Shown here in pieces: positions 12,557 to 50,883 of a DNA stretch of 64,000 nucleotides. Origin of the DNA: Kappaphycus alvarezii (Eukaryota > Rhodophyta > Florideophyceae > Gigartinales > Solieriaceae); NCBI GenBank assembly GCA_002205965.3, contig NADL03000045.1:248001-312000 (forward strand), given 5' to 3'. Each line of letters opens with the position of its first letter. The first letter of the stretch is position 1. The notes below the pieces were generated by a model. It saw only the letters and a program-made list of their open reading frames with translations. It was not told the origin of the DNA and did not search any database. The translations under genes were made by a program, and so were the position numbers.

Positions 12557-13128
12557 AGCCACGACAGCATCCAGCCGCCACTCTGACAAACACCACTAGT
12601 CCTACACCTGCCCATCTGCGCCAAAACAAGCAATCCGCCCAATCCACACTACAAACAAAACCATACATACCACACCATACCGTACCATACACAACACAAC
12701 TCTGCCAACAAAATAGCCGCAAAATCCACACCCACCACCAATTCCACATCCGCGCACACAACCCACAAATAAAAAAAACCCCAAACCCCTCCCCCTCCCC
12801 TCAAAGCACAACACAGTATCCGCCCCAATGTCCCGCAATCTCTTCCCGCGTCGGACATGCCGCGCCGTTTATAACGCCGCATGCGACGGTGGTAACTGAA
12901 AAAACGCACCAGTGGACACGCGACATTTGCCCGCGTTTTGCTGGAATGCATCTTGGATGCATGCAGTGCATGCGACGGACAGTGGTGCAGATAGTGGTGA
13001 GGTATTTTTGGAGGGCTATGGGCCCGCCGTTTTTATGCGCTGCGCTGTTCGGTCGGGGGTTTTGCAAGTTGGAGAAAAACGGTATCCTACGGCGCTTTGG
13101 TTTGCTTTGGTGTGGCAATGATGTCATG

Positions 13129-13176
13129 TACAGTACAGTACAGTACAGTACTGTACTGTACGTCAGTACTGTACAG
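13129..13176. repeat. palindromic TACAG/TACTG microsatellite
   Basis: Five-base units TACAG repeated four times switch to TACTG units, so the whole tract is its own reverse complement. This is the strongest of many such tracts in the window. Confidence 0.9.
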
Positions 13177-18640: not shown

Positions 18641-21258
18641 GTGTGGTGCAGTGATGGATGGCGCCAATGCTTTCATGCTATGACACGTGGGAGTGAAAGC
18701 GGCAAGTAAATATTTTGTTTTACTGTACAGTACTGTACAGTACGTTGCTTCTACAGTGATATCTTCACGCCGAGTTGCCTAGGTCGGTCACCGAAAATTT
18801 CTCTCCTGCTACGATATTTTCCGGCGCAGTCGCTTGCAGGCAACAATAATACCAGAGCGATCAGAGTTGAATACTGTCGGTTCGGTTGCGCATCCACTTC
18901 CATTTTGGGAGTTGAGTATGACGTCTCTGGCAGGTAGGGGGCGAAGAGGCTGTGGCATGGGTTAGCGGGGTTGTTGTAGCAGAGAATACTTTTCCGAGTC
19001 GCGCAAATACTGTAAGAAGAGATTGCTACCGCGGATGAGGGTGCGACAAGTATTCGAGACGGTTGTGCAGTGTTGTGTTGCGAGATTGGCCTGGAGATGA
19101 ACGGAATGTTGCAAAGATTGTTGCACAGCAGTTAAGCTTTCGGATAGTGTTGTTAGATTAGATGGTTTGTGGGTTGACCGCACTCTGCTCGCACCCCATC
19201 AGTGATACAAGCAGAGTGCTCAACAAACATAGCGTGCAGTGCAGTGCAGTATGTACGGTAGCGAGTTGTGGCTTGGGCGCGAGCGGTGCGGTGCAAAAGG
19301 TTACAATAAAGTAGTGTGCAATTTAGAGTCGGCAAGGGGCTTACAGCAGTTGCTTGTTAAATTTGTGAGCAAACCGATCTCGCAGGATAAATATTTTTTC
19401 TTCGACTGTCGCCATTGTTTTGTGTGTTTGTATGGATCCAAGCTTGAATTAGACAAGCTATTGTCCAGAAATGCTGTAAGCTATACATCTATAATGTACT
19501 GTACTATACTGTACTGCACTTGACAGTATGACACGGAATTTGAGATTCCTGTACAGTGTACAGCATGTGAATCGCGTTGGAAGTAGAGTAAATTGCAGAA
19601 TGATGAAAGGGTTAATCTCGACACAACAATAGTTGCTATACCTTTGTGTAAAGACTTTTACTATCCTGCAAGGTCTGACACTGTCAAAGTCAAACAGCAG
19701 GTTTCCGCGACAAGGGTACGAATTGCAATGCTACAATGAGATGAAACGCACAGTGACGGCAGTTTTCAATAGACATTAGCTACTCCGTCCAGGGTACATC
19801 GAGGCATCGAGAGGGGTTGCAAGAGATGGGAAATGAAAAAGTTACGGTGGCATGTGCGCACCAACACCAACTTTGCCCAATGTACGGCAGAGGACAGTCG
19901 GCACTTGAACCAGTGTCGTTTCGAAACAACCAGGCGGGTGTTGACCGTTGGCGAAAAATCTACAGGCTCCTGTTTGCAGAATCTTCAAGATGAATTGTCC
20001 AATGGAATTGCTTGATCAAGAGATGTATCCACTTGGAGTGTGCTAGGCGACGCACGGAGAAATATCTTTGATATGATAAAACCACATGCATTTTAGGGGA
20101 GGTAATGTCTCGCTGCTGGAGCGAATGGCTTGCTGTCGGTAGATTATCCCGTATAATCATGATAGATGATTGGTGCGATAATTCTCAATTCCACCGTTCC
20201 ACTGGGTTGAGGTAGTTATCAAAGTGACGGTCCAACTCAATTTCAACTGTCGTATGTTGTTGGGTAAAAACAAAATGTAATCGACAGAAATGATTGGGAC
20301 AATGTAGGGCGTTCAAGAGAATGGAAGACATTTCCAAATTACTGCCAAATTAAATTTCGAATAAAAAATTTGCTGAAGGCTTTACAAAACGAGCCAATGA
20401 CAGCATAGTGTGCAAGCTGCCTTCATAGTTTCAACCGAAAATAAGGCGGTCAGCAGTTTTCAAGGAGGCGAAACACCGCCAACTGCTGGACCAAAAAATA
20501 TTTTGAAAAAACAACACTTTCCTCAAACAAACTTTGGGGTACAAGCCCTTTGAGAAATCCTAGAGCCGTCTCCAGTCAAAAAGCACCCACAACAATGAGT
20601 GCAACTCATTTAAATTTAGAAAAAAAAAACAAAATCCATTCCCTTGTGGAACGGTAGGAACTATCTCCCCTCAAATTTGCAAAAAGCAGAAAAAAACAGC
20701 CTACGGGAGAAACCCTTATCGCTCTCGCTACAGTCACACCGAGGATTACCTCGAAAACAGCCCAAAACACACCCCCCTTTGAAACATTGAGCCCTTTCAC
20801 CGCGACACCAACCTCCCCAAAAAACCTCGATCTGCACCCCACCCCGATGTCGCTTCACAACTAAAAAAGCCCGTCGTTTCTCCGCTCACCCCATCGCACC
20901 GGCACGTCGGCTCCCCCCCCCCTGCCGAGACCGTCCAGCCCGGCATCCGCTTCAAGCTCATTGTACCACCCACTCTCCATCACTCACAGCATCCTTCAAG
21001 CCCCACTCCAGGCCCGCACTCCCGCCACTCCACCACCCCATCCCCCATCACAAGCACCACAGCAACCCTCCACCCATCCCATTTCACCCCGTCCACCACT
21101 CACAACCGCCACCCACCCACCCCACCGACACTCACCTCCACACTCCCCCCCACTTTTTAATAGTTTGTCACACACATACACACACCACCCCCGCAAATCA
21201 CCCACACATCCACATCCACCCTCCCCCCCCCGCCCCGACAACCACACAACCCCTCGCA
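18641..21258. other. gene-poor stretch and 5' leader of the B-box gene
   Basis: No recognised gene. GTAC-type palindromes lie at 18722-18743, 19496-19518 and 19550-19563. From about 20900 to 21258 the top strand is almost free of G and very rich in C, like the leaders of the other genes, and probably holds the promoter and 5' UTR of the gene starting at 21259. Confidence 0.45.
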
Positions 21259-22367
21259 ATGGGCCGCCTCTGTGAACTCTGCCCCCACGCAAAACAACAA
21301 CCCGCCACCGTCTTTTGTCCCGCCGACGAATGCTTCCTGTGCGCCGCATGTGACGATATCGTCCACTCTGCAAACCGTCTCGCACGTCGTCACGTCCGTC
21401 GTCCACTCCTCCTCAATGAGGATCCCGCCGACGGCTCCAGTATCAACGAAGATTCCGAACTCGCTCTTGTCCCCGATGTCACACCCTTGAGTCACGACAT
21501 TCACTCGGATCCGGATTCGTCCCAGGATTCCTTGCTGATGGGTTTGCCGCAGGGCGTGCCTGTGTCGTTTGAGGATGCCGCGAGTATGATTTTGTCGATT
21601 TTGGGGGGAGGGGCTTGAGGGACGTATGCCGGATTTGTGTGCTATTGATGATGGCGAGATGTTTGGCGATAGTGGAAAGGCTTTGGGTAGGAGTTTTGGG
21701 GGGGAGATGAGTTGGGAAAGTGTTGTCCCGGATACTATTGAGCATATTGTGCCGGATGTTGTCGAGGCTAGGGGGTTGCCGTTTTTGAAGAGGGAGCCGT
21801 TGGAGGTTGATGTTAAGACAAAGGTTTTGGTCACCAGTGGGATGAGGGGAGTGAGGGGCAGGCAGAGTTTCAAGCACAGGGAAAGCAGGTTTGTATCAAG
21901 GGGGAGGAAGTGGTTATGTCAACTGTGGACAATGTCAAGGAGAACAAGGAGGGTGTCGTGGGTGGGAAGAAGAGAGGGAGGGAAGGCTTTGGAACAGGGA
22001 GAAGCGGAGGAATCGGCGGGGCAACCAGGAGGAAGGAGGAAAGTCGGAGGGGGAGTTGGAGAAGGAGAGGCTGGAACGGACGGCCGAGCAAAGGAAGAAG
22101 CGACGGATGGAGGCGTTGGCTAGGTTCAGGAGTAAGAGGGCAAACCGCTCGTTTACGAAAAAGGTGAGGTATGAGTGCCGGAAGCAGTTGGCGGACTCGA
22201 GACCGAGGGTCAAGGGGAGGTTTGTCAGGAAAATTGAAATGGCGTTGTATAGAAAGTATGGGGCGCTCTACCGTGAGCATCTGGACGAATTGAAGAATCC
22301 CGAAAATGTCAAACTCGGAGCCGAGAACAGGTCGGGTGCAGGGGATCAATGCGTCCCGGCAATGTGA
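21259..22367 (+). CDS. B-box zinc finger protein with CCT domain (CONSTANS-like)
   Basis: The N-terminal 45 residues are a B-box: CELCPHAK, CPADECFLCAACD and a closing HSANRLARRH supply the Cys/Asp/His zinc ligands. A low-complexity acidic middle follows (EDPADGSSINEDSE, VSFEDAASMILSIL). Near the C-terminus (about 22108-22240) is a CCT domain: RMEALARFRSKRANRSFTKK then VRYECRKQLADSRPRVKGRF. In plants and algae such proteins are nuclear regulators tied to light, circadian and photoperiod control; the CCT can bind DNA with NF-Y partners. The three blocks lie in three frames, with changes near 21605 (G6/G4 run) and between 21870 and 22030. The start at 21259 is the first ATG after a C-rich leader. 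Confidence 0.8.
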
Positions 22368-22989: not shown

Positions 22990-25700
22990 GGATTGCCTGG
23001 AACGGACACATTTTGAAGTTGTGGCCTTAGGTGTCGCTCGAAAGCCCCTCCAACAAACAATTGGCGTTATTCTGAACGAGTCTCGCCGCGTGACGAGCGA
23101 AAAATGTTTGCCGCGCATCAGAAATCGGAATGGCTGCCCGTGCCGCAATGCCAGTCGCAACCCGGTTGGCGACTTCCCGTGCAGTCCAGTGCCAGCCACC
23201 CAACGTGGAGAGTGGAAGGGCAATGAAGCGATACCCAGGACCCTTTGAACGTATAAAGTCGGCAAAGCAAGTGTCCTTGCCAAGGCGGGCATGGTTCAGG
23301 GGCTTGAGTGGACATCGTGCCAGGGAGAGGAGGCGGACGCGGGTCAAGGGATGGATGACGGTTACGTCATAATTGTCTGTGGCCCCTTTCTCTCCAGGCG
23401 CCTTGATGTCCGGCCGAACTGCATGGCCGCGTTCTGGGGATTCGAGGACAGGCTGTCGGGCGGCTTTGGAGAGGTCTGCGGCAAACAAACGTGTTTTCGA
23501 ATCGTGCCGCCATCCGCAGGTGGTTCCATAGGCGCAGCACAGCGCGTGGTCGCCGTAACGATCCATAAGTGTCGTACATCCCCTTGGCATTTTTGAAGCG
23601 GGAGGAAGCAATGGTACCCTGCAACAAACTGCAGCCACGTCTTGTACTTGCGGTCCGAGATGTGGGTACCCAAGCCCGGAGCCGGTTGGCATGAACACCA
23701 GTCTTTGCAACCATCGACTGACAACGAGGCTCGGAATGCCAGTCCCTCTCATTCCCCTTTGGCTTGGAGTCAAGGGCCTTTTCCTCAACTGGGCGAGCAA
23801 GTTGCCCTTGCCCAAACCGCCCTGGAGTCGATAGCCGTGAACTGGACAACCTTGTCGGTGCCACTTGTGTCTTCCACTCATCGTGCGCCCGAGCTGCGGA
23901 TGTGTAAGTTGGGAGAGCAGTGTTCGGTGGCACAGGGAGAAGGGTAGAGCACAGGGCACGCATGAGGGATACGGAGGAAGGAAGGCAGCCGCCGCAGAGA
24001 ACTTAGCGGAGCGGAGCCCGATGCCAAATGTTGGCTTGCGGGGCCCAAAGGGCGCAATAGGAAGTTATAATTCCCGAACAGCGTCTGCGTCCAGAACCCC
24101 GCCCATCATCCCCCGCAGCGTGTCTTTAACAGTGGTGTCGAATTCGGTTGCTCCCTTAAGGGTGGAATGAGGGGGAACCACACGTAAGAGGTAGTTGATC
24201 CGACATACGCCAAAGCTTGTCCGCAGTAGGTGGAAAGCTACATGAGTATCCTCCAGGGTTAACAGGGATTTGAGGAGAGGCTGTAACGAAGTGACGTGCT
24301 TTGAGAATTCGCGCTCCATGAATAGCTCCGAGCGTGGAGCGCTGTTGTCCCATCGTCATAGCTCTGGCGAAGCTCACATGGGAGGGACTGCTGAACAGGT
24401 GAGGGGGGACGGTTGGCCACCAGACAGCACATTATCCACGCGCAGGTGTAAACCCAAACTGCGCACCTCTGGGGACGAGAGGAACTGTGGTGCCGTTCGA
24501 ATGGGTGCCAACAAAGTACCCATCGCCCAAAAGCCACAGCTAAAGGAGTAGACAAGGCCTGCCTGTGGTGTTGGCCACATTTTCCAGGCGGGTTTTTGAG
24601 TTTTCGCATCACTTTTTGCAGCACAAGGGAGAATAAGAGTGGATCCAGCGGATCCCCCTGCTGCACGCTTACCACGCTCCACACGTACGCTGTAAACCTG
24701 GGTCATCTGTGGTGTGGATGTGGACCCAAGGTAAGAGCTCCGGGAATATCTGTTCGACCTCCGTCAAAAACGCACTGCAGCTGAGCAAGTTGAAAGCGTT
24801 TTGAAGGTCAACGGTTAACAGTGCATGCTCGTCGATGCGCCATGCTCCTCGCAATGTCGCCGTGTAGCGTAGACAATTGCCTCACATCTTCCTGACATTG
24901 ATAATCCCAACTGTCGTGGCTGAAAGTATTTGGAAGCCTTGTCGGAGATGCGAGTCAGCAAACATCTGCCCACCAAGCGACGTAAGGTCTTGCCCACGGC
25001 GATCGGTCTGATTCCTCCGTCCGTTTTCAGAAGAGCCGTAAGCGGCGCGCCAGCGATCCATGCAGATATAGCCGTAGGGCCCTTCCCGTTGGCTAGCAAG
25101 TTGACTACACTAGTCAGAGCAGCTAGTAAGCTTCGTCTAACATTGACAACTGGTGGGACCTGTAAGAGCTCAACAAGGTGGTTTGGGCACAGTCCGGATC
25201 CCCATGCGGCGCTACCCCTTGGAAAGCTCCGAACGCAATGGAGAACAAAGTTCTGGAGTGAAGTGGGGGCAGAGAGGCAGCGAGTCAGAGGAAGCGGGTT
25301 GGTACGACTCCGTAGTCGGAGAGCGCTGTGGGTGTTTCTCCCGAAGAATGGAAACCACCGCTGCAGAGGGGCATGCGATACCCGAAGATCGCAGCGAACG
25401 CGCTACCCTCCTTTGCGAGCCTGAGGGCGTGCCGCTTATTGATCCCCGTTTGCTCCTCTTCGGTTGCCTTGTGCAACGGGCGGGACTTTGCCGATACCTT
25501 TGCCCTTCGCATCAAAGTTTCGTATTGTCTATAACGCCAACGTTGAATGCGTTCAGCAAAATACGGGAATTTGATGCCGTGCCCGGGACGAGGGTTAAAA
25601 GGATGGACTTGGGATTGGCGAGGATCGCGGACAGGAATAGGAACAACTTGACGAGTGGGGTTAACTTGTGGGTTACTTAATTTTCCCGATAAGAGCAATC
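22990..25700 (-). mobile_element. LINE (non-LTR retrotransposon), inactive
   Basis: Pieces of one reverse-transcriptase polyprotein follow each other on the minus strand in several frames. Upstream are a conserved linker and the RT part: SAWIAGAPLTALLKTDGGIR with PIAVGKTLRRLVGRCL (25099 down), then ALLTVDLQNAFNLLS (motif A) and VQQGDPLDPLLFSL (motif B). Where the YxDD box should be the sequence reads LWLLGDGYFVG, so the first catalytic Asp is lost. The C-terminal 310 residues (23959-23027) hold a Cys/His motif (YGDHALCC), RPDIKAPG, DVTVIHPL and PLSTLGGWHW, typical of the end of such ORF2 proteins. No ORF1 or poly-A tail is evident. Frameshifts and the lost Asp make it inactive. Confidence 0.85.
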
Positions 25701-33440: not shown

Positions 33441-34353
33441 AGTTGATTGCGGTTGTCTGGAAAACCATGGGATAGATCGGATATATCTTCCAAGAGTAAA
33501 ACACCCAAACCTTTCCCCGTTGACGAAATGACGAGTTTGACGGAGAGATGTGAGATCCGGAGGTCGGCTTCAGGAAGACGCCCAACATGGCGACGGTTAC
33601 ACGAGCGGGCAGTTGATTTACAAAGGTTTTCAGGAATCGAACGAAAACCGGTGGTTGCACGGCTCGCTGGTCCGAAAACAGAAGCATTGGTGTGAACTCG
33701 TGAAAGTCGACAGTTTCGCAACAAAAGTTAGTCATTGCACTATGAGGTAATGATAGAGTCCAAACATATGCAACACTCCACCCCACTTTCAGCTATTGCA
33801 TATTACCTCATACGAGTCAACACAAAATCCATCACAGACGCTGGTAAGCGAATATAAATTGGCACTCGAACGTCGCCAGACCAAGACTGTTATGGATGCC
33901 ACCCGTCCCGTAACAGGGGGAGAGGGTTTGGGTGTTGTACTCTTGGAAGATACATCCGATCTATCCTAAAATGTTCCAGACAACCACTATCGACACAAAC
34001 GGGCACGCACATTAATGGGGGAGGAACTACGCCCCGGAAGACCACATAAGGGCTAGCCATAAAGCATGCCGCATTGGACATGACGGTTGCTGTAGAGTGC
34101 CTGTGCATCAAAGCCCCTCGAACTTTTACATATGTCTCCATTGCGCTCACGGCTACGTTCCCTGTTACGTCATTTAGCACCGCGCATGCACCCTGGTGCC
34201 AAACTCTGTGAGTCCAGATCGGCACAGGCAAGAGCCTACCTATGACGGAAGTCGCGATAAAAGATTGAATCTTCTCTGGTTTGGTTTGGGTGTTTTACTC
34301 TTGGAAGATATATCCGATCTATCCCATGGTTTTCCAGACAACCGCAATCAACT
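33441..34353. repeat. perfect 71-bp inverted repeat
   Basis: Bases 33441-33511 are the exact reverse complement of 34283-34353. A third, diverged copy in the direct orientation of the right arm begins near 33928 (GGGTTTGGGTGTTGTACTCT) and breaks down after about 60 bases. The arms bound about 770 bases that include a LINE fragment. Confidence 0.95.
33880..34270 (-). mobile_element. LINE 3' fragment (copy 3)
   Basis: Close relative of copies 1 and 4: shares GACATGACGG, CTGTGCATCAAA, CACGGCTACGTTCC and GTCGCGATAAA with 34410-34630 on the top strand. The minus-strand frame ending at 33890 keeps a GACAVLNDVTGNVAVSAMET segment matching the end of the LINE protein. Confidence 0.65.
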
Positions 34354-34354
34354 C

Positions 34355-35140
34355 AAAAAGGGTATACCGACACAGTAATTGGGAAGGAACTCGCTCCCTA
34401 AAATGCTACCTTCAGGCCAGCCATCAAGCAGGCCGCATTGGACATGACGGCTGCTGCGGCGTGCCTTTGCATCAAAACCCCCGAACCTTTCCATACGTCT
34501 CCAGTGCCCTCACGGCCACGTTCCTTGCCACGTCATTTAGCACTGCACATGCATCCGGGTGCCCCCTCCAAGAGTGGAGATTGGCACAGGCCCGAGCCTA
34601 CCTCTGGTGGAGGTCGCGATAAAGGATTGATATCTTCTCTGCTTTGCATTTCGCGCCGCATTCAGAGAGGATATCGGGTTGAATGCCCTCACTCTCCTGT
34701 TGGACGGAGCGAGGGGATTCACGAAGGTAACATCAAAAAAGTCGGTCCCTCCGCTGCTTCCCATTGCCTGGATGTCTGGTCTCGTGCGGTGGAGACCATG
34801 GCGTGGCTCTACGACAGGATGAGCAGCTCTTGCCAGGTCTTTCGGAAGAAGGTTTACCTGGCGATCATGTCGGTTGATCCTGTTGGCTCCATGCAAGCAG
34901 TGCATGAGATGATCGCCATGTACATCCAGTGTGTCCGGGCAATTCTCTGGTTGGTATTTCACGCCGCATTCAGAGAGGACATCGGGTGGAAGGCCCTCAC
35001 TCTCCTGCTGGAAACCTCTCATTCCCGGGAACTTGTTGCGATGCTGCAAGTGAGAGAAGAGAACGTGGTCCTTACTCCAGCAGAAAACCGATGCTCTTTT
35101 CTCTCATCAAGTTGGCATCAACTACTCAGGTAACCAGTTC
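34355..35140 (-). mobile_element. LINE 3' fragment (copy 4), longest
   Basis: The minus-strand frame 35049-34537 (170 codons) reads ENCPDTLDVHGDHLMHCLHG, then RTRPDIQAMG, FFDVTFVNPLAP and PVPISTLGG, the C-terminal Cys/His and endonuclease-like block of the LINE family. Continuation in another frame (34537-34410) reaches the end of the protein. No RT remains, so it is 5'-truncated. Confidence 0.75.
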
Positions 35141-37591: not shown

Positions 37592-38930
37592 CTACCTTTT
37601 TTCGATGAACCTGCCAAAGTCATCGGCAGTGCCAGTGAATGTTTTGCCTCCCGCAGTTGCATTGACTCCCTGAAAGTCCAGGCCGATTGACACTCGGGCT
37701 TTGGACGACCCACCGTTGACAACGACAGGTTTATATTCACCTGCATCCAAGTCGCGCCTCCGCGCGGATGCACTACGCTTGAATCCTCGTTGGATTCCCT
37801 TGTGCTTGCTATGGACCTTATCTGCCAACTTGCTTTCTGCATGGCGCACAAGCTGCGGATCGCAACCGCCACTATCGCTAGGCCGCGGTTCCAAACCAGG
37901 ACACAACGGGGGCTCGAGCTCAAAATTCACAACGCCTTTCCAGTCAATGCCATCAAAGAAAGGATGATTCTGAACATCCAATGCGTCATTACCGTCACTG
38001 CCGAGGCGGGTAGCCGGATTCTTGTCGAGCAGGCGATAAATAAGATCGCGACATTGTGGGGAAATGTGAGACAAACGGTCGTCATTTTCCAAGTCGAGTT
38101 TCTTATTCTGAATGCGATGATGGAGCATTTCGCGGATTCATCAGCAGCAAATGGAGGACGACCTGCCATGAGAACATAAGCAAGAACGCCCAGGGCCCCA
38201 GTCGACAACACGGCCGTGACCTTTACCCATGAGCATTTCGGGGGCTTGATAAATGGCTGTACCTGAGATGTCGAAAATGGCCTGCTCACCCGGTTCACCG
38301 GAAATAAACTTGCCGGCGAGACCAAAGTCAGTGAGACGGACATGGCCCTTTTCGTCAATGAGAATATTCTCGAGCTTCAAATCGCGAAAGACGAAATCAT
38401 GGCGATGCAATTCCTTGAGGGCGACGATAATCTCAGCGAGATAAAATCTTGCCTGAGCCTCTGTCAAACAACCATGCTTCTTCATAAGATCATACATATC
38501 GCCACCCGACACATACTCCAAAACAAGAACGACTGCATCATTTGTTTGAAAGCCAGAATGGCATTCAACAACAAAGGGATGCGGGCCTGCCTCACGCAGG
38601 ACGCGACGTTCCATGACGACGGAATCGAGGCTTTGAGCGGCGATGAGATGTGATTTGCTCATTACTTTTGCGGCGAATAATTCACCGGTGGCTCGTTCGC
38701 GGACGAGAACGACGGTGCCAAAGGTGCCTTCGCCGAGGTGACGGACGGGAGCGCATGAGGGAAGAACATTTGCTACTTTGGACCAGGTGGTGGGAGGGGG
38801 GGACGAGAGCTAGAGGGATTGGCGGAGTTTTTTCGAGAGAGTCTTGCGGAGGACTTTCTGGGAAGTTTTGTTGAGGGTTGTTGTGGGTTTGGAGAGGTTT
38901 CGGGGGGGATTTGCTGAAACAGTTGCCCAT
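37592..38930 (-). CDS. AGC-type Ser/Thr protein kinase with N-myristoylation signal
   Basis: The start at 38930 gives MGNCFSKS: Gly2 with Ser6-type context for N-myristoylation and Cys4 for palmitoylation, so membrane anchoring is likely. A proline/serine-rich linker of about 50 residues follows. The kinase domain then shows HLGEGTFGTVVLV (glycine loop), LFAAKVMSK (ATP-binding Lys), VFRDLKLENILID (catalytic loop with the FRDLK typical of AGC kinases), TDFGLAGKF (DFG), YQAPEML (APE), GVLAYVLMAGRPPF and LLDKNPATRLGS with HPFFDGIDW, a standard AGC lobe end. The C-terminal tail of about 100 residues is basic and lacks an obvious FxxF hydrophobic motif. Frame changes lie near 38790, 38200 and 38110. 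The subfamily is not clear. Confidence 0.8.
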
Positions 38931-39589
38931 TTTTTGCGGACTGGAGAGAGTGTGGAAATGGGATGTGGTTGGATGGGGATGGGTGCGGTGAGTAGAGTGT
39001 GAACGGAGGATTGAGTCGGATTGGGACTCGGTTGAGGAGGAGGATAAATGAGATGGGATTGGATTGGGAATGCTCGAAATCTTCAGGTGAGCAGCAAGGT
39101 GAGGTGATCGGATTGCGGATATCTTGCACAGGGCGGAACCGTAAGTACAGTACAGTACTGTACAGTACAGTTCTGTAATGTACAGTACAGTACAGTACTG
39201 TACATGTAGTGCATAAAAAGCATTATTCAAAAGATACTTTTTCCAAAAAAAGTTCTGGGAGGCACGTGGGGGCATCTATTTTTCTTGATGTCAACAAAGG
39301 AAAGAAGCCGAAGCAGGAGGTGCCTCCATGCACATACTCCAAAAACAATCCAATACACGTACGACAATTGTCTATAATCAAAAAATGAAGCAGGCAGCAC
39401 ACTTGATCCTTGAGATCATTTACTGTACACTACTGGACTGTAAAAAACATTTTACTGCATCGATTGCACCAGTGGTTGCGCAAGCGCTTCATGCCTTGGC
39501 GCAGCGCCTACAAATCGACACACTCCACCCTCACAATACGCACTGCACACCCATTGTATCTTCCTCAGTCGATCATTCCCTCACGAATA
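38931..39589. other. promoter side of the kinase and left flank of the retrotransposon
   Basis: The top strand is G-rich next to the kinase start (its sense leader is C-rich). Then comes a long GTAC palindrome tract (39145-39204) and host sequence up to the repeat array. No gene. Confidence 0.5.
39145..39204. repeat. long palindromic GTACAGTACTGTAC tract
   Basis: Sixty bases built from TACAG/TACTG units that read the same on both strands apart from a few interruptions. Confidence 0.9.
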
Positions 39590-40655
39590 CCCTTTCGCCT
39601 TTCCTTGGTTCATTTTCGATTTGGCCAGATTCCATCAATCTTCTTCTTCTTCAATCTTCTCTAACACTACTTACTTGGTGAATACAATGAATTCAATATT
39701 TTGACAATGGTTCAAAATTTATTTAAACTTCTCTTCGAAGCCGCGAGGCACTTCTAGGACCCAAGACTTTGGGCTTGGGTGGCAGTCCGGAGGATCCGGT
39801 GGCTTGACTATCCCTAAAAAGAAATACCTATAGTAGTGGGCAGTCGAAGGATTGGACTAAGATAAGAAATGTCGGGCGGGTAGAGCGGTGGGAGCCAGAA
39901 AAATTCCTCCATGTTTTCGTTTGATACCTCCTGATGCTTCATACTCTCGTCTCACTTCTCAGCTCACCAACATGCGAAAGACTATTTGGTTCAACGAGTT
40001 CACCAAATAACTTTTTCGCCTTTCCTTGGTTCATTTTCGATTTGGCCAGATTCCATCAATCTTCTTCTTCTTCAATCTTCTCTAACACTACTTACTTGGT
40101 GAATACAATGAATTCAATATTTTGACAATGGTTCAAAATTTATTTAAACTTCTCTTCGAAGCCGCGAGGCACTTCTAGGACCAAGACTTTGGCTTGGGTG
40201 GCAGTCCGGAGGATCCGGACTGGGCTTGACTATCCCTAAAAGAAATACCTATAGTAGTGGGCAGTCGAAGGATTGGACTAAGATAAGAAATGTCGGGCGG
40301 GTAGAGCGGTGGGAGCCAGAAAAATTCCTCCATGTTTTCGTTTGATACCTCCTGATGCTTCATACTCTCGTCTCACTTCTCAGCTCACCAACATGCGAAA
40401 GACTATTTGGTTCAACGAGTTCACCAAATAACTTTTTCGCCTTTCCTTGGTTCATTTTCGATTTGGCCAGATTCCATCAATCTTCTTCTTCTTCAATCTT
40501 CTCTAACACTACTTATTGGTGAATACAATGAATTCAATATTTGACAATGGTCCAAAATTTATTTAAACTTCTCTTCGAAGCCGCGAGGCACTTCTAGGAC
40601 CCAAGACTTTGGGCTTGGGTGGCAGTCCGGAGGATCCGGACTGGGCTTGACTATC
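39590..40655. repeat. tandem array of the element's terminal repeat (about 421 bp unit)
   Basis: Two full units (about 39596-40016 and 40017-40437) and a partial third (40438-40655) run head to tail. Units start TTTCGCCTTTCCTTGG and end ACCAAATAACTTTTTCG. Units 1 and 2 are nearly identical, differing by a few one-base indels and a small GACTG insertion near 40215. The partial unit fuses into the recombinase gene's 3' end at GGCTTGACTATCCC. The last 122 bases of each full unit (39895-40017 and 40316-40437) equal the right terminal repeat. Confidence 0.95.
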
Positions 40656-41672
40656 CCATCCCGCAATCATCCCGGAACGTTGAAGTAGTGCCCCGGGCGC
40701 CGCCGAGCCGATTGAGTTGCTCGCGGACCTTCTGAGGAAAATCCAACTTGATAAGGGCCATAGCACCGGCTCGAACGTAGTGGTCTGTTGTAGAGAAACG
40801 AGCCCAACGTCCTCGATGATGTATATCCAACATTGGTAAACGACCAGAATGGAAGTCGTGCGTTGCCCCCCGTAACGGAGGCAATGGGGCGTGACAGACA
40901 AATGGGACAGATGTAGCCCCGTCGGCTGCCGGACTACCTCTTGGATAGCCCGGCGAAAAACTTCTTGAGAGAACTTGAAAAGGCGATCATGAGGGGCCAA
41001 TTGTCGGACGAGGATGAGACGCCTCAGTAACGAAGAGACGAAAAGGGAGCGAACAGTTACAGACTGGGACTTTCCGGATTTGGTGAATGGAAGCAGGATC
41101 GTAGCAAAAGAAAAATCTGTGGGATGTTCATCAAATATGACTTGGTTTCTTTTCAACAAACGGCATTCATCATGCCGTAGATAACACTCATGGGAGACGA
41201 GGACCGCAACGGCCATCTCAAATTTGTTCTTCCTGAGGAGGTAGTATGCGATGCCAAGGGCGAGATCTTGCGGACACGGGATATACTGCTGGCTGGGGGC
41301 GCACCGATCCCAGCCGCGGAGAGCTCTGCTTGACATAAAGAGTTTCCCTGAAACTTCCGGCGCAAAGAACTTGATGGCGGATAGGGTCTTACCCGCGAGA
41401 CTCTTGTGTTGAAGTGGAGAATCCAAATAGAACAGGTAATTAATATATCGGAGTAGGCATTCGTCGAGTTGGTCAAAATCATCAAGGGAGCGTTTACTGT
41501 TTGCACAGTATACGAAGAACTCCCGTAAAGCGGATCGGTACTCTTTGGCTGTGTTCGGACTTACACTCGCTAGGAGCTTATACGCATCTTGAGGGGCCAT
41601 CTGCAGGGTTTTGCTCGGACGGGATCCAAATAGGTGTAAAACGGATAGCACACGAAAGGGAGAGGGCGGCAA
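40651..41672 (-). CDS. tyrosine recombinase of the DIRS/PAT-like element
   Basis: Cuts and joins the circular DNA copy into the genome. The frame starting at 41672 shows an N-terminal core-binding part (SPNTAKEYRSALREFFVYC), then VSHECYLRHDECRLLK with the first catalytic Arg, and SVTPHCLRYGG with the HxxR box. Directly after, in a G6 run near 40870, the frame changes by one base; the other frame (40884-40651) continues with HDFHSGRLPMLDIHHRGRW and FSTTDHYVRAG, supplying the Trp and the nucleophilic Tyr. All of the R-H-R-W-Y set is therefore visible. Without the shift the first frame runs on to 40563 into the terminal repeat, which looks like an artefact. Confidence 0.85.
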
Positions 41673-43530
41673 TCTTCTGAGCGAGACGCCGCAGCCGAGG
41701 AGAACTCGACCTGCCCTTGGCCAACATAAAATAAATTACCTGCGAATCTGTTAGAATCGCAGTTCTCCGAAAAACTGTTGCTCGCTGTCGCGCGAGCCAA
41801 CGTAAACCTGTCAATGTCGTATGACCTTCCAGCGCGTTTATGTGCTGGGCGAATTTCCATTTCTTAGCACTGATCATTTTCCAGTGAAAACGAGGGACCG
41901 GAACCTCTCGAGGCAAGATACCTCGAGAAAACTTAGACACAAGCTCCACCTGGTTGGGGTGCCAGGCGGAATAAGGTGCGTACATACTTGCCCCTCCTTT
42001 GGAGGAGGCATCGGATACCAACATGAAATCCCCGTTCTTTCCTCTTAAATCATAGTGAAGTAACGGGGCCAAAGCCACCAGCAGGCCTAGCTCGTGTCGT
42101 GCGCCGATACTGGGTTGTAGTACTGTTGAGGAAGAACGGAGACCTTCATACAGTTCTTGCAAAACCGAGAAAACAGGACGATTCAGCAGAATAAACCAAT
42201 TCCAGGAGCCGAGGAGCTTCTGGAGCTCGACCAGGCTCCAGTCCTTAGCCCTTTCTAGCTGCTTCGTCCTTTTTATCAATTCAGCCATCTTTGCATGATC
42301 AGGCTCCAAACATCCTTTTGAACACCACTTAATCCCCAAAATCGACTTTTCACTTGCACTTGGCCGCTCACATTTGGACGGCTTAGGGTCGAGTTTTGCA
42401 TCAGCAAACACTTTCCATACTTTCTCATATACTTGGTTCACCTTTTTCTTATTGTGTCCCACAACAAAGAAATCGTCAATATACCTTCCATAACGTACTG
42501 CACCGATAGATTTCCCGTTCGACGCCTTTATCTCTCTCTCGGATTAAGCCCGGCTCGTGCCAGCAGCTCGCCATGAATTGAGTGACCGACCAGCACTGAA
42601 TGCGACCATCCCATCGGGAGGACTCGATACCTGGGCCAAAACCGTTTTCCTCGATCACTACGCAAGGCAGACCGAAGTACACACGGAGGTGCTCAGGTAG
42701 TTCCAACCGATGATAGTGGTTATCAATGTCCAACTTTCCGGTGAAGATCAATTTGTCATCCACTGCTTCGAGTTGCGTGAACAACCCTGGGTGAGGCATG
42801 TCACCCTCTGCTGGGGGAATGAAGTGCAAATTCCCCCGCCGGGCGTCCAAGATCAAACGCTGCCGGCCTCCATCCTTTGGGACTGCAAAAAGCCCATTGA
42901 TCTCTTTCGGTCTTTCCGTCGTCAATTCCAGTATATGTTTTTCCAACAACCCGGCCACTAAGGCTGGATATGCCGTAGGAGTAACCATAAGGCATTTCTT
43001 TGTGTCTTTCAGTTCGGCTTCCGTAGGTTTTCGAAGAATACCTCGGTCACCTGGGTCTGTATACTGGGGTATCATTCCCTGTGGGAGCACATCTCGAAGA
43101 GATACACAACCTGCAACCTCTGCCGGAGGCAGGATAATTTCTTTAAGTCGATGAAGTTCGCATCCGCGACTCCAACATTCCCACCATATGTTTCTGCCGT
43201 AAACGAGAGCGGCGCGCGGAAATTTTTGTTCCGGCGCCAGAACTCGCGACATCTTAATTCCAAATAAACCAACACGTTGTCCTGGACCGCAGTGCCTCTC
43301 CCCCTCTTTGCCGTTGGAAGAGAGAGATCAGACATAGCCCTCAAGTAATAACTATCTCTGCAATACAAGAAATTCAAAGCACATACCAGTCGCCTGGTTT
43401 CTACTGCAATCTGTCTTCGCTTGGCCTGACGTTGACGCAATCTACTGCTGCGGGAAAATTTCTGAAAACAAACATAATTTATTGGGCAAAGCAAGGGGAA
43501 AAGGTCCCTACGGTCCTCTAATTGAACCAT
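41578..43530 (-). CDS. reverse transcriptase-RNase H of the DIRS/PAT-like element
   Basis: The RT part shows LFAVPKDGGRQRLILDARRG (motifs 1-2), TGKLDIDNHYHRLELP (motif A with its Asp pair) and, across a frame change near 42480, GRYIDDFFVVG (motif C, intact YIDD). Then comes SEKSILGIKWCSKGCLEP and the RNase H: FMLVSDASSKGGASMYAP, a Glu in LEGHTTLTGLRWLARQ, ILTDSQV and NPADGPSR, giving the four acidic residues. The N-terminal extension (43530-43252) is basic. The frame breaks at about 43200 and 42480 are single-base; apart from them the enzyme looks complete. It overlaps the start of the recombinase frame by about 95 bases. Confidence 0.85.
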
Positions 43531-43544
43531 TGTTCTTCTTCTTT

Positions 43545-44718
43545 CTACTTGCTCGAGCCTCCACGTTCGTCTCGATCCTCTTGCGAACGGTTAGAGGCTT
43601 TTCGGTAGGACTCGGCCACTTTTGCAGATCTCATCGCTCGCCCCAGCACATCATGGATCGTCGCATCATTTCCTACGGACGACTCCAAGACATGTTTGGC
43701 AAGCTCCCAAGATCCATGCTCCATGGCCAACTCCAAGGCAAGCAACCTTCTTACTGCAATTTCAAAGTCGGGTTCCCGACAAGTTTTCTTCCATCCATTG
43801 TACGCGATTCTCACATCGAGCATCCGCGCCCAAGCCAGCGCCTCATTCAAATTTCTCTTCTCCATCTTCTTCGACCCGTAGGGCAGACTGCGAAAATAAT
43901 TCGTTATGCTGTTTCCAGCCACGATCCAACGGTGCACAGTCGCCGCCCCAATTTCTTCTTCTGGCTCAACATTGATCCCGGCCACAGACACCCGAATGTC
44001 AGCCTTCTGCGCCCGTACCTTCTGGCGTTCCATTCGCGACAGCTTTTTCTTCCCTCTGGCATGTCGCTTCTCTTTGCGCGCCAATCGGGCTAAAAAATTA
44101 GCATCGTCATCCTCGGAGTCCATTTCAGACTCCGAGGATGACGATGCCTCACTTGAATCTCCGAGTTCTGCCCGGGACGCCAGTAAACGCTGCACGCTGC
44201 CCGCCTTGGCCGGACCAGCCACAGCACCACCAGCCTCCACCTTTTCCAGTCTTCGATTCATGTCTTGCACATTTTTGCCCAGATCCTTCAACATTGACCC
44301 ATTTCCCCCATCTGCTTCGCCAATAGCTGTAACGGGTCCTTCTTTTTATTCCTTTCCTGGACCCCGCAATTTTGACTCGTTTGCTCCTCTCACCTTCGTT
44401 CTCAGACGCCGATTTGACACCAACCTCATTTTCACTCTCGCTCTCGGACTCGTCATTGACCTTTTCCTTTTCTGTGTCCCCATCAGATCCACCACCCTCG
44501 TCTTCCACTCTGGGTACGGGCCACATTCCATTCCCGACCTCACTCAAGCACTCAAGCGCCGTCATGTTCTTGGAATATCCAGGTAGCTCTCCCAGCTTCT
44601 CAGCCTTAGGCCTCAAATACTTCCACAATTTCTTGGCGTTCGAATCGCGCAGGCTCGCAGCCTTGCCAAAGATACTGCTGCGATACACCTCCAACCAGTC
44701 CTCCCCGTGCCGGTCCAA
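43545..44718 (-). CDS. gag-like ORF of the DIRS/PAT-like element
   Basis: First product of the element, in two overlapping frames. The upper frame (from 44718) starts MDRHGEDWLEVYRSSIFGKA and has a long acidic-serine stretch (ESESESENEVGV), then a basic RRTRYSYWRSRWGK. The lower frame (44294-43545) has SSSSESEMDSEDDD, a basic KEKRHARGKKKLSRMERQKV and a helical C-terminal half (ALAWARMLDVRIAYNGWKK; ALELAMEHGSWELAKHVLES). No zinc knuckle is visible. The position ahead of RT and the alternation of acidic and basic blocks fit a DIRS gag, but sequence alone does not prove it. Confidence 0.6.
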
Positions 44719-45396
44719 TTCCTCGACCGCATCCTCCCACGAAAATTTTGTATTAGTAAGCCGAATACTTTAAGGTCAAGGGGCCAGCTCATTCCCCTCA
44801 CCCGAGTCAATGTCACTCCACAGACAGCGCGCGGTTGTGCGGGAGGGCTGCTCCCAGGCTGCCACGTGGTTGAAAAACCCAGCCTGTCAATCAACACCAA
44901 CAAGCGCCAACTCTCGTAAGGAGCGGGCCGCGTATACACGGGCGGGAGGTCCTCTCCTCCCCACGGTCACCGTCCTCCTTGGGCTACCGGCCCCACGGAG
45001 ACCTCTTACTTTCGCCCCTCAGTAAGAGTAAACTTTCCCACGCTGTTTGCGTCTGCGGGACAGACGACGGAGGGCCCGACGAGAACGGACAGCGTGCCTG
45101 CTACTTACACAAACCCCACTGGCAGAAAACAAAAAGGCGTAGCCTTGGTAATTCACGTTCCATGCAACCATTTATTTTGCCCCCACCTGCCATTAGGATT
45201 CTTCAGTCAATTTGCCAGCCAACCGCCCAAAATGAAACTTTCGCTCTACCCAAGATCACGGAAGATTAGCCACAGAGATTAACACTCTGCTCACGGAAAG
45301 GGCGACGGGAACGCTCTTCCATATGATCTTGCCCATTCGGCCTTTCCATATCTGATCACTAGAGGATAACCACTAGATCACTCACCCTTCCCCGGA

Positions 45397-45466
45397 GGCC
45401 GCCATCACTCCCGGGCGCCCGCCACAGTCTTGCGACTGCGGCAGACACCCAGGAGTGATAGCGGCC
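45397..45466 (-). ncRNA. candidate structured RNA in the element leader
   Basis: Two nested stems. Arms 45397-45411 and 45452-45466 pair over 15 positions with one mismatch. Inside, on the minus (element sense) strand, CCGCAGTC and GACTGTGG pair (one G-U) around a GCAA loop, a GNRA tetraloop. On the plus strand the loop would be TTGC, so the minus strand makes the better RNA. It lies between the right terminal repeat and the gag-like frame. Role unknown: translation control, packaging or a ribozyme are possible. Confidence 0.45.
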
Positions 45467-46320
45467 CCCGGTTCCAGGTGGAGTGGGGAAAAAGGCCTTT
45501 GCCAAGCCTACGGTTGAGAATTTCGTCACGGACCGGACTCAAATACCGGGAGCCTTAGGGTATGGCTGCCAACCCTGAGTAATAATTCCCAGATCCAATG
45601 GAGGTCAAACCGAACGAACGTTCAGCATCTCCCCACCTTCACACAAAGCCCCCTTAGAATCAAAGCTCCATTCTGCCTAACAGTCTCTTCGCTTAAGCAA
45701 GCTCCCACTACTAAGACCGGTTACAACACAAACTTCGCCAGACTCCGCGGAAGCCAAGGTTCCACCCTTCCTTTGCCAGCCTTTTTCACATAAAAAAAAT
45801 CTTTGCGGGGAGAGTCTGCCCCCACCTCAGACCTGAAGGCCCAAGGCAAGAACCAACCCTCAACCCACATCTCTCTTATACAAGCCAGGCCAGCTTGAGA
45901 AGGGCTTCCCGAAAATCGGACCCAAACACCGTTTCTGAGACTCTTCCGAACTCGCACCAGGTATTTTGCTGTATCTAATCACCAACTAGATCTGACACTG
46001 AAAATTTCGCTATATTCACTCACCAACCAATGGAGCTATTTTAGATCCGCCGAACACGAATCATAGGACCCCAACACCTTTGGCAAAGTTTTCCCCCCAC
46101 TCAGATATAAGATAAAACGAAGAGACATTTCACGACGGCGAGCCATTTACCAACCCCAGTTAGGCTGACACCATATGGAGGCTTTGGCCTTACACCCATG
46201 AGGGATCCATTCCCGGAAAAAGCGCCCCGCGCCCATAGCCGCTGTACAGCAGCATCCAAGAAATCGAAGACCAACAGCACTTACCCTGCCACCACCTGGT
46301 CAGGGTCAGTAAACTACTCA

Positions 46321-46446
46321 AAGCCAGAAAAATTCCTCCATGTTTTCGTTTGATACCTCCTGATGCTTCATACTCTCGTCTCACTTCTCAGCTCACCAAC
46401 ATGCGAAAGACTATTTGGTTCAACGAGTTCACCAAATAACTTTTTC
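46321..46446 (-). repeat. right terminal repeat (A) of the DIRS/PAT-like element
   Basis: About 125 bases beginning AGCCAGAAAAATTCCTCCAT and ending CCAAATAACTTTTTC, identical over their length to 39895-40018 and 40315-40438. The right neighbour (CTGCTTCCCGCAACC) is host sequence. Confidence 0.95.
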
Positions 46447-47186
46447 TGCTTCCCGCAACCATCCTTCTCCAAAGGGCATTCTCGCCCAAACAGCCCCTCT
46501 CCACCACCTCATCCAAACACAGAATAAACGTACAGAATCTACTGTACGCCATGCACTTGCCACGTTGCCCGCTCTTGAGAGTTGAGATCAGGGTTCTGCC
46601 GCTTGTACGCTACTGTCATTTTGCCATGTTACGACACAACGGCTCAAGTTGGATGCACTCGATGGCACACTACTCTCTCTCTGCCCGTTTGCACCAGGTG
46701 ATTGACGATTGCGCCATGCTCCGCGCATGCTGTTTTCGGGACCGCGCGCCAGTTGAATCATGCGGAAGGTCGGACTCGGTGGCGTCAAAGCTGCACATGC
46801 TGCTTCATTGTTGTCTTTGCCCACGCTGCTTGTATGCGGTGACACGGCGAGGGTGTTTCCCTTTCCGAGCAACTTTGTAACCCGAACTGTATGATATACT
46901 GTACTGTACTGTGCAGTACAGTACTAGACTTCAACGAAATACGAGGGATAATGCGAAAGAGCCAATACTACCAGATACTGAACGCATTAAGCTTCTTTCT
47001 TCTACTGTAGAACCAGGGCTGAGTACAGCAACACGCGTGATTTAAATAAAATATAAGGAGATTATAAATCTTATACAGCTTTACTATAAAGACTGTAAAC
47101 CACACAAAATTCAAATGCTGCTCCGTGATTACAGTAGAAACAAAAGTAGACCGCCTTTTTATTGAATGAGGCGATCAATTGCAGTA
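46447..47186. other. intergenic between two elements
   Basis: No gene recognised. GTAC palindrome at 46897-46924. The frame at 46551-46880 has no known motif. Confidence 0.5.
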
Positions 47187-47782
47187 CAGTACAGTGGGCC
47201 ACCCCGAGTAGTGCACCTACGTGCATGGCGGCGTAAAGGTGCGCTACATGTGTGGTGCACAAACCGGATTTCGCTTTACTGAGAAGCCCATAGCTCGGTC
47301 AGAAGAGCTTGCCTACGACGCGTTTGAGCTTAGAGGCGATATTACTCAAGAAACGCGCGCTTTGCCCCCTTCAAAAGAGCGTTAGCACGGTCATTACCAC
47401 AATCCTGAGCATAACTCGCCACTGTAGCAAACATATCTGCAATTCCTGCCGGATCCGGAGCACGTTTCACTGTCACCTTCTGAGGTACGTCCTTATTATC
47501 ATGTCTAGAACATTCTTCACCATTAGACTGGTTTTTCACTAATAATTCCTTCATCTGATAACTGCTCAAATACGTCATCTATCACAGCTCTTTGAATCTC
47601 TTCATTGCCCTCATGCAAACCTAGTTTTGCACATCACCATTTTGTAACCCCAGGAAATGTTTCGCAGTCGCCAGCAATTCCACTGGATGTCACTTTTAGC
47701 TCCGTAGACGAGGAACAAACTTGTGACAACACTCAAAAAAACCCATCGTCCTTGACCTTAGCATCCACTTTTCATGCAACTC

Positions 47783-47866
47783 TGTTGTAACACAGGAAAT
47801 GGTCCTCCCCTCGTGTAACACAGGAAATGGTCCTCCCCTCGTGTAATACAAAAAATGGTCCTCCCA
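47783..47866. repeat. three 28-base tandem repeats
   Basis: Units CTCGTGTAACACAGGAAATG plus GTCCTCCC, the first and third slightly diverged, inside the pogo-type element. Confidence 0.85.
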
Positions 47867-48339
47867 AAGGGACCAGCAATTTACAACGATCCCGCCCCTG
47901 ACTCCGTTTACCGTCCTTTCCAAATTTGTCTACCATCCTCCCTAGATATTTAATACTGTGTAATCTCCTCCAAATAAGCGTTTTACGTCTTTTTTTATCT
48001 ACCTTCTTCATCAAACTCACTCCTTATGTAGAAATTTCACGCAAATGCGCTACTGCAATTTCGATTTAACTTTTTAGTACCGACTCCAGTCCGCCTCTAA
48101 GGTGTATTTAAACCTATTTTACCCAACTTTTTTGAGATCCACCAACCCCTATACACACACTACCCTCCCCCTCGCACCCTTTATCCTCCACTCACAATCG
48201 CCCCACTCCATTTACAACCAAAAATAAACATCCTTCGCCCCTCCGCCCCCATCACCAAAAATCGCCACCCCCGCCTCTAAACTCCATTCCCGTACTCCCT
48301 TTCGAACCTATTGACCGTGACGACTACCTACGCCGACAA

Positions 48340-49101: not shown

Positions 49102-50403
49102 TCAACTATACCACGGTAGCACTTTTTTCGCTTTCAACACCTCCTTCTTGGGGTAATTGGTTCTGAGTATCTCTTCTCCCGACGATTTACCCCTATCACC
49201 TTCCATGTCGGCGGTCATAGTAGCTGATAAAACGTTTGACTTTAACCAGCATAGTGCAATTGTCCGTTCGGTGAGAATTTTCCATGCTTGTGTAACTAAA
49301 ACCATGGAATCTAGCACATGCGGCTCAAACCCTTCAGCAATACCCTTTGTTTCATCATGCATACCCTTTGCTTTTTCACGTCTTGCGTCCCGGTCTTCAA
49401 AGGCGCTTATGATCTCAACCAAAAAAGCATGGCGATAACGAAACTCGAAAGCAGCAATTATTCCACAGTCTAAGGTTTGATGAACCGATGTGCAATTCGG
49501 TGGAGAGCAAAAATAGTTCTATGCTCTCCAGGGTCCTTCAACTCTTCATGCGCCGAGAAATTTTCCATAATAAGCACCACAGGTTTAGACGTATGACGTC
49601 TAACAAAAGGGCAGAATATGTTGTAAAAACATCGGCGGAAAGTCAATGCATCTGACCACGCGTTCTTCTGAGAAAAGTATGGGAGAGGTATTGGATGGTT
49701 TTGAAAGCAACGAGAATTCTTGGACTTACCTATTAGCGCAATGGGAAGCTTCTTTGTTCCATCTCCATTTGTGCAGACGTATGCAGTGAGCCGATCTTTG
49801 GCTTTCATATTCTTGGTGCCTCGAACAGTTTTACGACTTTCAGTTTTCCATGATGTAGGTTCTCTGTAGTAGCAATCTGATAAATAAAACGGTTTCATCC
49901 GCGTTAAAAATGTTACGGAGGTCGTAGTCAGGCAGTTGGTTTCGAAGTTCTTTCATTTTTGGAGATACCTTTTTAAGATCTACAGTACCTGCTTGACCAT
50001 GTAATGTAACTGAACGAAGATTGTGTCGCACAGTAAAAAGGTATGCCAAATGCTCTGAAGCTTTGAAATCAATAAGGAGTTCTTTCTGCTCCTCTGTGCC
50101 AGACGTTATGATTTTGTCGCGTATCATCTGTGCCTTTGTTTGTATAACACGGGATGTGATTTGCATTTTGGCGGAACGTGCATAGTTTAGGAACTGCAGC
50201 AATTGACGCTCAATAATAGGATACTTTCCATTACGATTTTTGATGCGATCCATTCGCTGTAGCTCTGGATTGATGTTGAGGATGTTGGAGCGTTGCCTCT
50301 TCATATTGAAAGTTGTGCGTCTGCTGATTTTGTTATTTCTGAGAGACACAGGTTGCTGAAATACCGTTTTGAAGATCACGGGCAAATGCATGACGCTCTG
50401 CAT
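49102..50403 (-). pseudogene. pogo/Tigger-like transposase (HTH + DDE), broken
   Basis: Frame 50403-49840 has a CENP-B/Tc5-type N-terminal helix-turn-helix region (NYARSAKMQITSRVIQTKAQ) and ends in IFNADETVLFIRLLLQRTYI, the first DDE motif. Frame 49898-49470 continues with NMKAKDRLTAYVCTNGDGTK, KLPIALIGKSKNSRCF and KPVVLIMENFSAHEE. In the family this second motif is LxxDNAxAH, so the Asp is here Glu. Another frame gives SPPNCTSVHQTLDCGIIAAF and VTQAWKILTERTIALCWLKS, the usual end of the DDE domain (49102). A further C-terminal piece may be 47578-47342. At least two frame changes and the D-to-E change make activity doubtful. Confidence 0.8.
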
Positions 50404-50883
50404 CGGTTATTTGCCGCCTTGTCTGTGGTTTGATCGTCATCGTCAGATGATGGATTATGTTGAAGTGTGCGGTTATGGTGTTATCGCACTATTTTGTGAA
50501 AGAGGTGGAGAGAGGGTCAGTGAAAGGGTGTGAATTGATTGATATGTGTCCACGTGTCTAGTGCGGTGTGAAGGAAGATAGGAGTGCATTACAAATGTTG
50601 TGCACTTCTAACAGGGTGCACTACAACGGAAGTACTCCTCTGTACTGTATTAATGTACTCAGTCTTTAAATGCTTGAGCGATCTCTTGTCCTGCAAACAA
50701 ACAACAGTTGCCCCGTGCGCACCGTTTCTCTGTCTTTACTGCTACAAACTGACCAAAAAGCCCGAAATCCCCCATTCTCAACCTGCAACCACTGATAAAG
50801 ATTCATTCCAGAACTATGCACCGCAGAATTCTCCATAAGAGCCCAGACCTCCCCGACATTAAGACGGATTCTGATCGAGAAGA

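What the first reader, a model, noticed from the sequence alone, without database searches (positions are those of the whole stretch)
39590..46446. Tyrosine-recombinase retrotransposon with split direct repeats in a likely algal genome
Gag-like, RT (YIDD intact), RNase H and a tyrosine recombinase with the full R-HxxR-W-Y set are all visible in one orientation, and the ends are direct split repeats. DIRS-order elements of the PAT/Ngaro kind are uncommon and little described outside animals, fungi and green algae. Long frames and near-identical repeats suggest recent activity.
Basis: partly seen in the sequence, partly recalled or inferred. Interest (0 to 1): 0.75.

Follow-up and report, generated by a model that had tools for sequence, protein, structure and literature searches.

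The report
Ngaro-type tyrosine-recombinase retrotransposon
A 6.9 kb jumping gene that copies itself through RNA and inserts with a tyrosine recombinase, of a type already known from many eukaryotes; here it carries one extra copy of its end repeat and lies in a eukaryotic genome that could not be named.

Summary
On the minus strand, 46446 to 39593 is a 6.85 kb tyrosine-recombinase (YR) retrotransposon: A1, an ORF1 in the Gag position, reverse transcriptase (YIDD)-RNase H, YR (R, HxxR, W, Y), then B1-A2-B-A2-B2. A1 and both A2 copies are identical over 125 bp. The ends overlap the internal B1|A2 junction by exactly four bases (GAAA), as expected if a circle joined at B|A recombined with a GAAA in the target. 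By structure (split direct repeats downstream of YR, no methyltransferase found) it is Ngaro-type. No labelled Ngaro, PAT, VIPER or DIRS sequences were at hand, so clade membership was not tested. Conserved genes nearby are broken likewise, so assembly indels are likely. "Gag" rests on position. Such elements are already described in dinoflagellates, brown algae and Cafeteria. The host may be an alga but is unproven. Unusual points: an extra 421-bp A-B unit, and an RT on a lone long branch. Copy number, empty sites and activity could not be checked: the genome search was busy in ten of ten tries.

The parts
46322..46446 (-). A1, 125-bp 5' split direct repeat; begins with the GAAA core (+ strand 46443-46446)
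   Evidence: identical to 40314-40438 and 39893-40017
44801..46321 (-). 5' leader, about 1.5 kb; longest minus-strand stop-to-stop frame wholly inside it 85 aa (a 117-aa frame from 44966 runs into ORF1); lower limit set by eye
43545..44800 (-). ORF1, in the Gag position; two frames (44769-44152, 44345-43548), stop TAG at 43545-43547; start set by eye
   Evidence: Gag identity is by position only; the zinc-knuckle pattern matched once, across stop codons
41578..43530 (-). ORF2: reverse transcriptase (LPMGWSHS, YIDD) and RNase H (ends NPADGPSRCV), stop TAA at 41578-41580; frame changes near 42640 and 42531 by homology, another near 43140 by eye
   Evidence: RVT_1 E=0.00099, below its cut-off
40654..41600 (-). 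ORF3: tyrosine recombinase; Met at 41600, 23 nt inside the end of ORF2; frame change near 40867; C-terminal end uncertain (homology reaches 40705; one frame stops at 40654, another at 40563)
   Evidence: P0012 47% identity over 61% of the query, E 2.7e-60; tblastn pieces; catalytic residues aligned
40439..40657 (-). B1 (219 bp), joined directly to A2
40314..40438 (-). A2; the B1|A2 junction carries GAAA
40237..40313 (-). middle 77 bp of the A-B unit, not found next to A1 or B1
40018..40236 (-). extra B copy
39893..40017 (-). extra A2 copy, identical to A1 and A2
39815..39892 (-). second copy of the middle, 78 bp
39593..39814 (-). B2, 3' end of the element, ending in the GAAA core (+ strand 39593-39596)

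Best explanation
A Ngaro-type YR retrotransposon. Inferred cycle: RNA is transcribed from A1 towards B2 and copied by its own RT-RNase H. The internal B1-A2 segment serves as a template that restores the ends and closes the cDNA into a circle with one B|A junction. The YR then recombines the GAAA in that junction with a GAAA in the chromosome, leaving A1 at one end, B2 at the other and no target-site duplication beyond the shared core. Shown here: the domains, the repeat order and the four-base core at both ends and at the two internal junctions. Inferred from the published model: the RNA, the circle and the recombination. The extra A-B unit is most simply a further YR crossover, or a slippage, between B|A junctions. 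The broken frames are more likely assembly indels than decay, so the copy may be young.
For: Repeat order and identical A copies. GAAA is shared by the 5' end (GCA|GAAAAAGTT), B1|A2 (GGC|GAAAAAGTT) and the 3' end (GGC|GAAA|GGG); an overlap of four bases by chance is about 1 in 256 (own estimate). RT-RH: 11 homologues, 89 by profile; Ty3 RT is the best PDB match of the profile (E 0.013) and of a low-confidence fold of P0004 (E 1.1e-5 but TM-score only 0.20). YR: P0012 and P0013, PF00589 above cut-off in P0013 and below it in P0012, XerC-like chain in PDB at E 0.0032 by profile. No methyltransferase match at E<=1 in five frame pieces covering most of ORF2-ORF3 (the short RT piece 42692-42531 was not scanned), and ORF2 and ORF3 overlap. 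Assembly indels: Aminotran_1_2 lies in three pieces that alternate between two frames, DDE_1 in two pieces in two frames.
Against: No second copy in the window, and the genome search did not complete, so no empty site or copy number. Frames are broken, so this copy may be dead. ORF1 has no recognised domain. The window's own RT and YR frames stay below Pfam cut-offs. The window row sits on a long branch with no supported group. Without an empty site the GAAA pair could be read as a 4-bp target-site duplication.
Confidence: 0.86

Rival explanations
1. A PAT-like element that has lost its methyltransferase, or a VIPER-like one: same split direct repeats and mechanism, different ancestry.
For: PAT elements have split direct repeats, an MT-less Pat1-like lineage exists in C. 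briggsae, and Toc elements lack a zinc finger (PMC4157794, passages). VIPER has A1 and B1, A2, B2 in the same order (PMC6681497, passages) and no MT.
Against: Internal repeats downstream of YR and no MT fit Ngaro; VIPER is called known only from Kinetoplastida (PMC3783388, passages and abstract).
Confidence: 0.13
2. An LTR (Gypsy-like) retrotransposon whose recombinase is a foreign insertion.
For: Best PDB match of the RT profile and fold is Ty3; RT is only distantly related to anything labelled.
Against: YR lies inside the repeat-bounded unit, its start overlaps the RH stop by 23 nt, the repeats are A1...B1-A2-B2 and not LTR-LTR; no integrase domain in the seven frame pieces scanned.
Confidence: 0.02
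3. A decayed, immobile copy: the frame changes are true mutations and not assembly errors.
For: Three frame changes by homology, about three more by eye.
Against: A copies are identical; blastn counts one mismatch and nine gap openings over 649 columns between the overlapping units, so indels dominate; an aminotransferase and a DDE transposase in the window change frame likewise. That those two genes are themselves intact in the organism is assumed.
Confidence: 0.25
4. The extra 421-bp A-B unit is an assembly artefact.
For: Tandem repeats of this length are prone to miscounting; the sequence shows signs of indel errors.
Against: The copies differ at a few positions (one mismatch, several gaps), though most of these could be sequencing errors.
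Confidence: 0.2

Closest known systems
Ngaro elements of Cafeteria burkhardae (PMC8547959, passages read)
   Same: A1-[ORFs]-B1A2B2, ORF1 gag-like, ORF2 RT-RH, ORF3 YR with HxxR and Tyr, typical length about 6 kb
   Different: here one additional A-B unit; sequences not compared (not at hand)
SymbioDIRS elements of Symbiodinium (PMC5890265, passages read)
   Same: A-coding-B-A-B repeats, divergent RT, separate YR ORF; proteins named Symbiodinium are among the RT-RH profile hits (P0058, P0060, P0091, P0096)
   Different: the SymbioDIRS-Dnmt3 ones carry a cytosine methyltransferase; the four Symbiodinium rows sit in a branch of 27 apart from the window; that they are SymbioDIRS was not tested
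Ectocarpus Ngaro and PAT-like families (PMC12477816, passages read)
   Same: YR retrotransposons in an alga, 15 Ngaro and 5 PAT-like families
   Different: sequences not compared
PAT/Toc elements of green algae (PMC4157794, PMC3266345, passages read)
   Same: split direct repeats, no zinc finger in Toc
   Different: PAT belongs to the DIRS group, defined there by a methyltransferase, which was not found here
P0012 (315-aa YR from a 7344-base public contig)
   Same: 47% identity over 61% of the query frame, same catalytic residues
   Different: source organism and the rest of its element unknown

Membership tests
Ngaro-type YR retrotransposon | split direct repeats ordered A1 ... B1-A2-B2, internal pair downstream of YR | tested here: met
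   one extra A2-B unit; VIPER shares this order
Ngaro-type YR retrotransposon | RT and RNase H followed by a tyrosine recombinase, same orientation | tested here: met
   spread over several frames
Ngaro-type YR retrotransposon | no methyltransferase domain | tested here: met
   no Pfam match at E<=1 in the frame pieces scanned; ORF2 stop and ORF3 Met overlap by 23 nt
Ngaro-type YR retrotransposon | RT-RH and YR fall in the Ngaro clade of a reference tree | not testable with these tools
   no labelled Ngaro/PAT/VIPER/DIRS sequences at hand; among unlabelled relatives the window is a long branch without a supported group
Ngaro-type YR retrotransposon | Gag ORF | tested here: inconclusive
   ORF1 in the right place, no domain above cut-off
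PAT-like element | methyltransferase after RNase H | tested here: not met
VIPER-like element | placement with kinetoplastid VIPER/TATE in an RT tree | not tested
   no labelled sequences at hand
DIRS1-like element | inverted terminal repeats and internal complementary regions | tested here: not met
   seven inverted pairs of 20-34 nt in 38500-47500, none at the element's ends; four of them pair GTAC-rich stretches that lie about 390-460 bases outside the two ends, a motif also present at 13127-13176
LTR retrotransposon | two full direct terminal repeats and a DDE integrase | tested here: not met
   5' end carries A only; no integrase domain in the seven frame pieces scanned
YR integration | short core shared by both ends and the internal junction, no target-site duplication | tested here: inconclusive
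   GAAA at both ends and at both internal junctions fits; no empty site to prove it

The most novel reading that the evidence does not exclude
The 3' end is a recombinase-addressed array: every B|A junction is itself a YR site (GAAA), so whole 421-bp A-B units are gained and lost by the element's own recombinase, and copies in this genome differ in unit number. If so, YR retrotransposons would have a cis-acting cassette array at one end, and unit number would record past circle recombination.
Probability: 0.2. Interest if true: 0.45.

Novelty: new member of a known kind. Interest (0 to 1): 0.28.

Why it matters
It adds a well-bounded, near-complete Ngaro-type element with a visible candidate integration core, from a divergent RT lineage. 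The extra A-B unit gives a testable view of how split direct repeats are renewed. Otherwise it is an ordinary transposon insertion.

Tried and rejected
LTR element with an inserted recombinase: rejected because of the repeat order and the ORF2/ORF3 overlap. DIRS1-like: rejected, no inverted repeats at the ends. Other copies in the window: none by tblastn (E<=0.1) or blastn (E<=1e-3) with the element masked. Relatives with genomic context: four scans of viral contigs (1, 7, 23 and 3 candidate stretches) and one of genome contigs (19 stretches), none confirmed as a relative. PDB search with the YR frame alone: nothing relevant. Structure of YR (3-row alignment, P0012 modelled): mean pLDDT 52, residues 223-315 under 50, not used. 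RT-RH model (P0004): mean pLDDT 57, TM-scores near 0.2, used only as weak support. tRNA scan and Rfam scan at gathering scores: nothing. Bacterial promoter/terminator scan of 39500-40700: consensus hits only, not used. Naming the host: not achieved; I found no tool here with eukaryotic genomes to compare it with.
Full report
What is there. Read on the minus strand, the unit runs from 46446 to 39593 (6,854 bp). Its 5' end is A1 (46446-46322). Its 3' part is B1 (40657-40439), A2 (40438-40314), a 77-bp middle, B (40236-40018), A2 again (40017-39893), the middle again (78 bp), and B2 (39814-39593). The tandem part is a 421-bp unit in 2.5 copies with 98% matches. A1 and the two A2 copies are identical over 125 bp across 6 kb. 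Between the overlapping units blastn counts one mismatch and nine gap openings over 649 columns. Seen as an LTR, the full unit is A-middle-B; the 5' end has only A, and B1 only the B part.

Ends and integration core. The ends read GCA|GAAAAAGTT at the 5' end, GGC|GAAAAAGTT at B1|A2 and at the extra B|A2, and GGC|GAAA|GGG at the 3' end. The start of A and the end of B therefore overlap by exactly GAAA. In the published DIRS1 model the circle junction recombines with an identical 3-bp sequence in the genome and leaves no target-site duplication (PMC3266345, passages read). The four-base overlap fits that model with a slightly longer core. Without an empty site the same bases could be called a 4-bp duplication, but that would not explain GAAA at the internal junctions.

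Proteins. ORF2: the frame 42543-41581 has YIDD and the RNase H residues D, E, D, D, ending NPADGPSRCV. Eleven proteins match at E<=1e-3; a profile of 12 rows finds 89 at E<=1e-3 among the 7,996 candidates scored. Of 80 relatives of at least 390 aa, 71 have a PMG[FW]S motif, 59 have NPADxPSR, and 50 have both; the window has both, in two frames. Pfam RVT_1 reaches 0.00099 in the window frame, below its curated cut-off. By profile the best PDB chain is Ty3 RT (E 0.013); by fold, from a low-confidence model of P0004 with TM-scores near 0.2, Ty3, HIV and CaMV RT. ORF3: two homologues at E<=0.01, only the 7,992 candidates sharing most words being scored. Both align with the window at the YR residues R (CYLR), HxxR, RGRW and the final Y. 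P0013 passes the cut-off of PF00589, P0012 does not; the window's own YR frames match a SAM-like domain, below cut-off, and no PF00589; a profile of the three finds a XerC-like recombinase at E 0.0032, while the window frame alone found none. ORF1: position of Gag, no domain above cut-off; the zinc-knuckle pattern matched once, across stop codons. ORF2 stops at 41578-41580 and ORF3 has a Met at 41600, so there is no room for a methyltransferase between them.

Broken frames. tblastn with relatives covers RT in frames -1, -3, -2 (changes near 42640 and 42531) and YR in frames -3, -2 (change near 40867). By eye there are further changes near 44340, near 43140 and at the end of YR. In the same window Pfam Aminotran_1_2 is matched in three successive pieces at 10795-9038 that alternate between two frames (the third piece below cut-off, E 0.0023), and DDE_1 in two pieces in two frames at 49952-49102. 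The simplest reading is an assembly with indel errors, but true decay of this copy is not excluded.

Relatives. A tree of 81 rows (the window and all 80 RT-type database proteins of at least 390 aa, of 96 held; quick method, SH-aLRT only) puts the window on an end branch of 1.57 with no supported group; the program flags it as long. A branch of 27 rows with support 100, holding the four rows named Symbiodinium, lies apart from it; the row named Prorocentrum (P0095) lies elsewhere. The best match of the first search, P0001 (45% identity over 53% of the query), was too short for the tree. None of the ten relatives scanned, 730-829 aa, showed an accessory domain in Pfam at E<=0.01.

Comparison with what is known. 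[quoted passage not shown] PMC3783388 gives Ngaro the order A-pol-B-A-B and the methyltransferase to DIRS (passages). VIPER has the same repeat order (PMC6681497, passages) but is called known only from Kinetoplastida in PMC3783388 (abstract start and passages). Ngaro elements with A1-[ORFs]-B1A2B2 are described in Cafeteria (PMC8547959), Ngaro families in Ectocarpus (PMC12477816) and DIRS-type elements with A-coding-B-A-B in Symbiodinium (PMC5890265) (passages). So the kind is known and not restricted to animals, fungi and green algae. I saw no report of an extra A-B unit in the listings of two searches (2 of 2 papers listed, 12 of 20 listed); that is a thin basis, and most subscription papers are not held.

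What could not be done. The genome search was busy in ten of ten tries, so copy number, empty sites and unit-number variation are open. A B-box protein resembling plant CONSTANS-like ones (resemblance recalled; Pfam zf-B_box E 5.2e-5, just below cut-off) hints at an alga, no more.

Verdict. A real, well-bounded YR retrotransposon, Ngaro-type by structure, in a divergent RT lineage, with one extra A-B unit. New member of a known kind; modest interest.

Noticed in passing
window 49102-50406, minus strand: Tc5/pogo-like DNA transposon: HTH_Tnp_Tc5 and DDE_1 in three pieces over two frames.
   Followed up: partly
window 23027-25402 and 33890-35103, minus strand: Frames that look like parts of non-LTR retrotransposons (resemblance recalled; no Pfam match in the three frames scanned, 23027-24064, 24815-25402 and 24259-24702; 33890-35103 not scanned); 33925-34646 holds a 363-bp unit twice.
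   Followed up: no
window 9038-10795, minus strand: Aminotransferase gene matched in three successive pieces alternating between two frames, a sign of assembly indels.
   Followed up: yes
window 39144-39204, 13127-13176, 46896-46930: Self-complementary GTACAGTACTGTAC-type short repeats; two such stretches lie on either side of the element, about 390-460 bases outside its ends.
   Followed up: no
window 44801-46321: Leader of about 1.5 kb without long frames before ORF1; G exceeds C on the element strand (skew 0.21; ORF1 0.31; the flank 46447-48000 also 0.17).
   Followed up: partly
window 20791-21618, plus strand: B-box zinc-finger frame resembling plant CONSTANS-like proteins, a weak hint of an algal host (resemblance recalled).
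   Followed up: no
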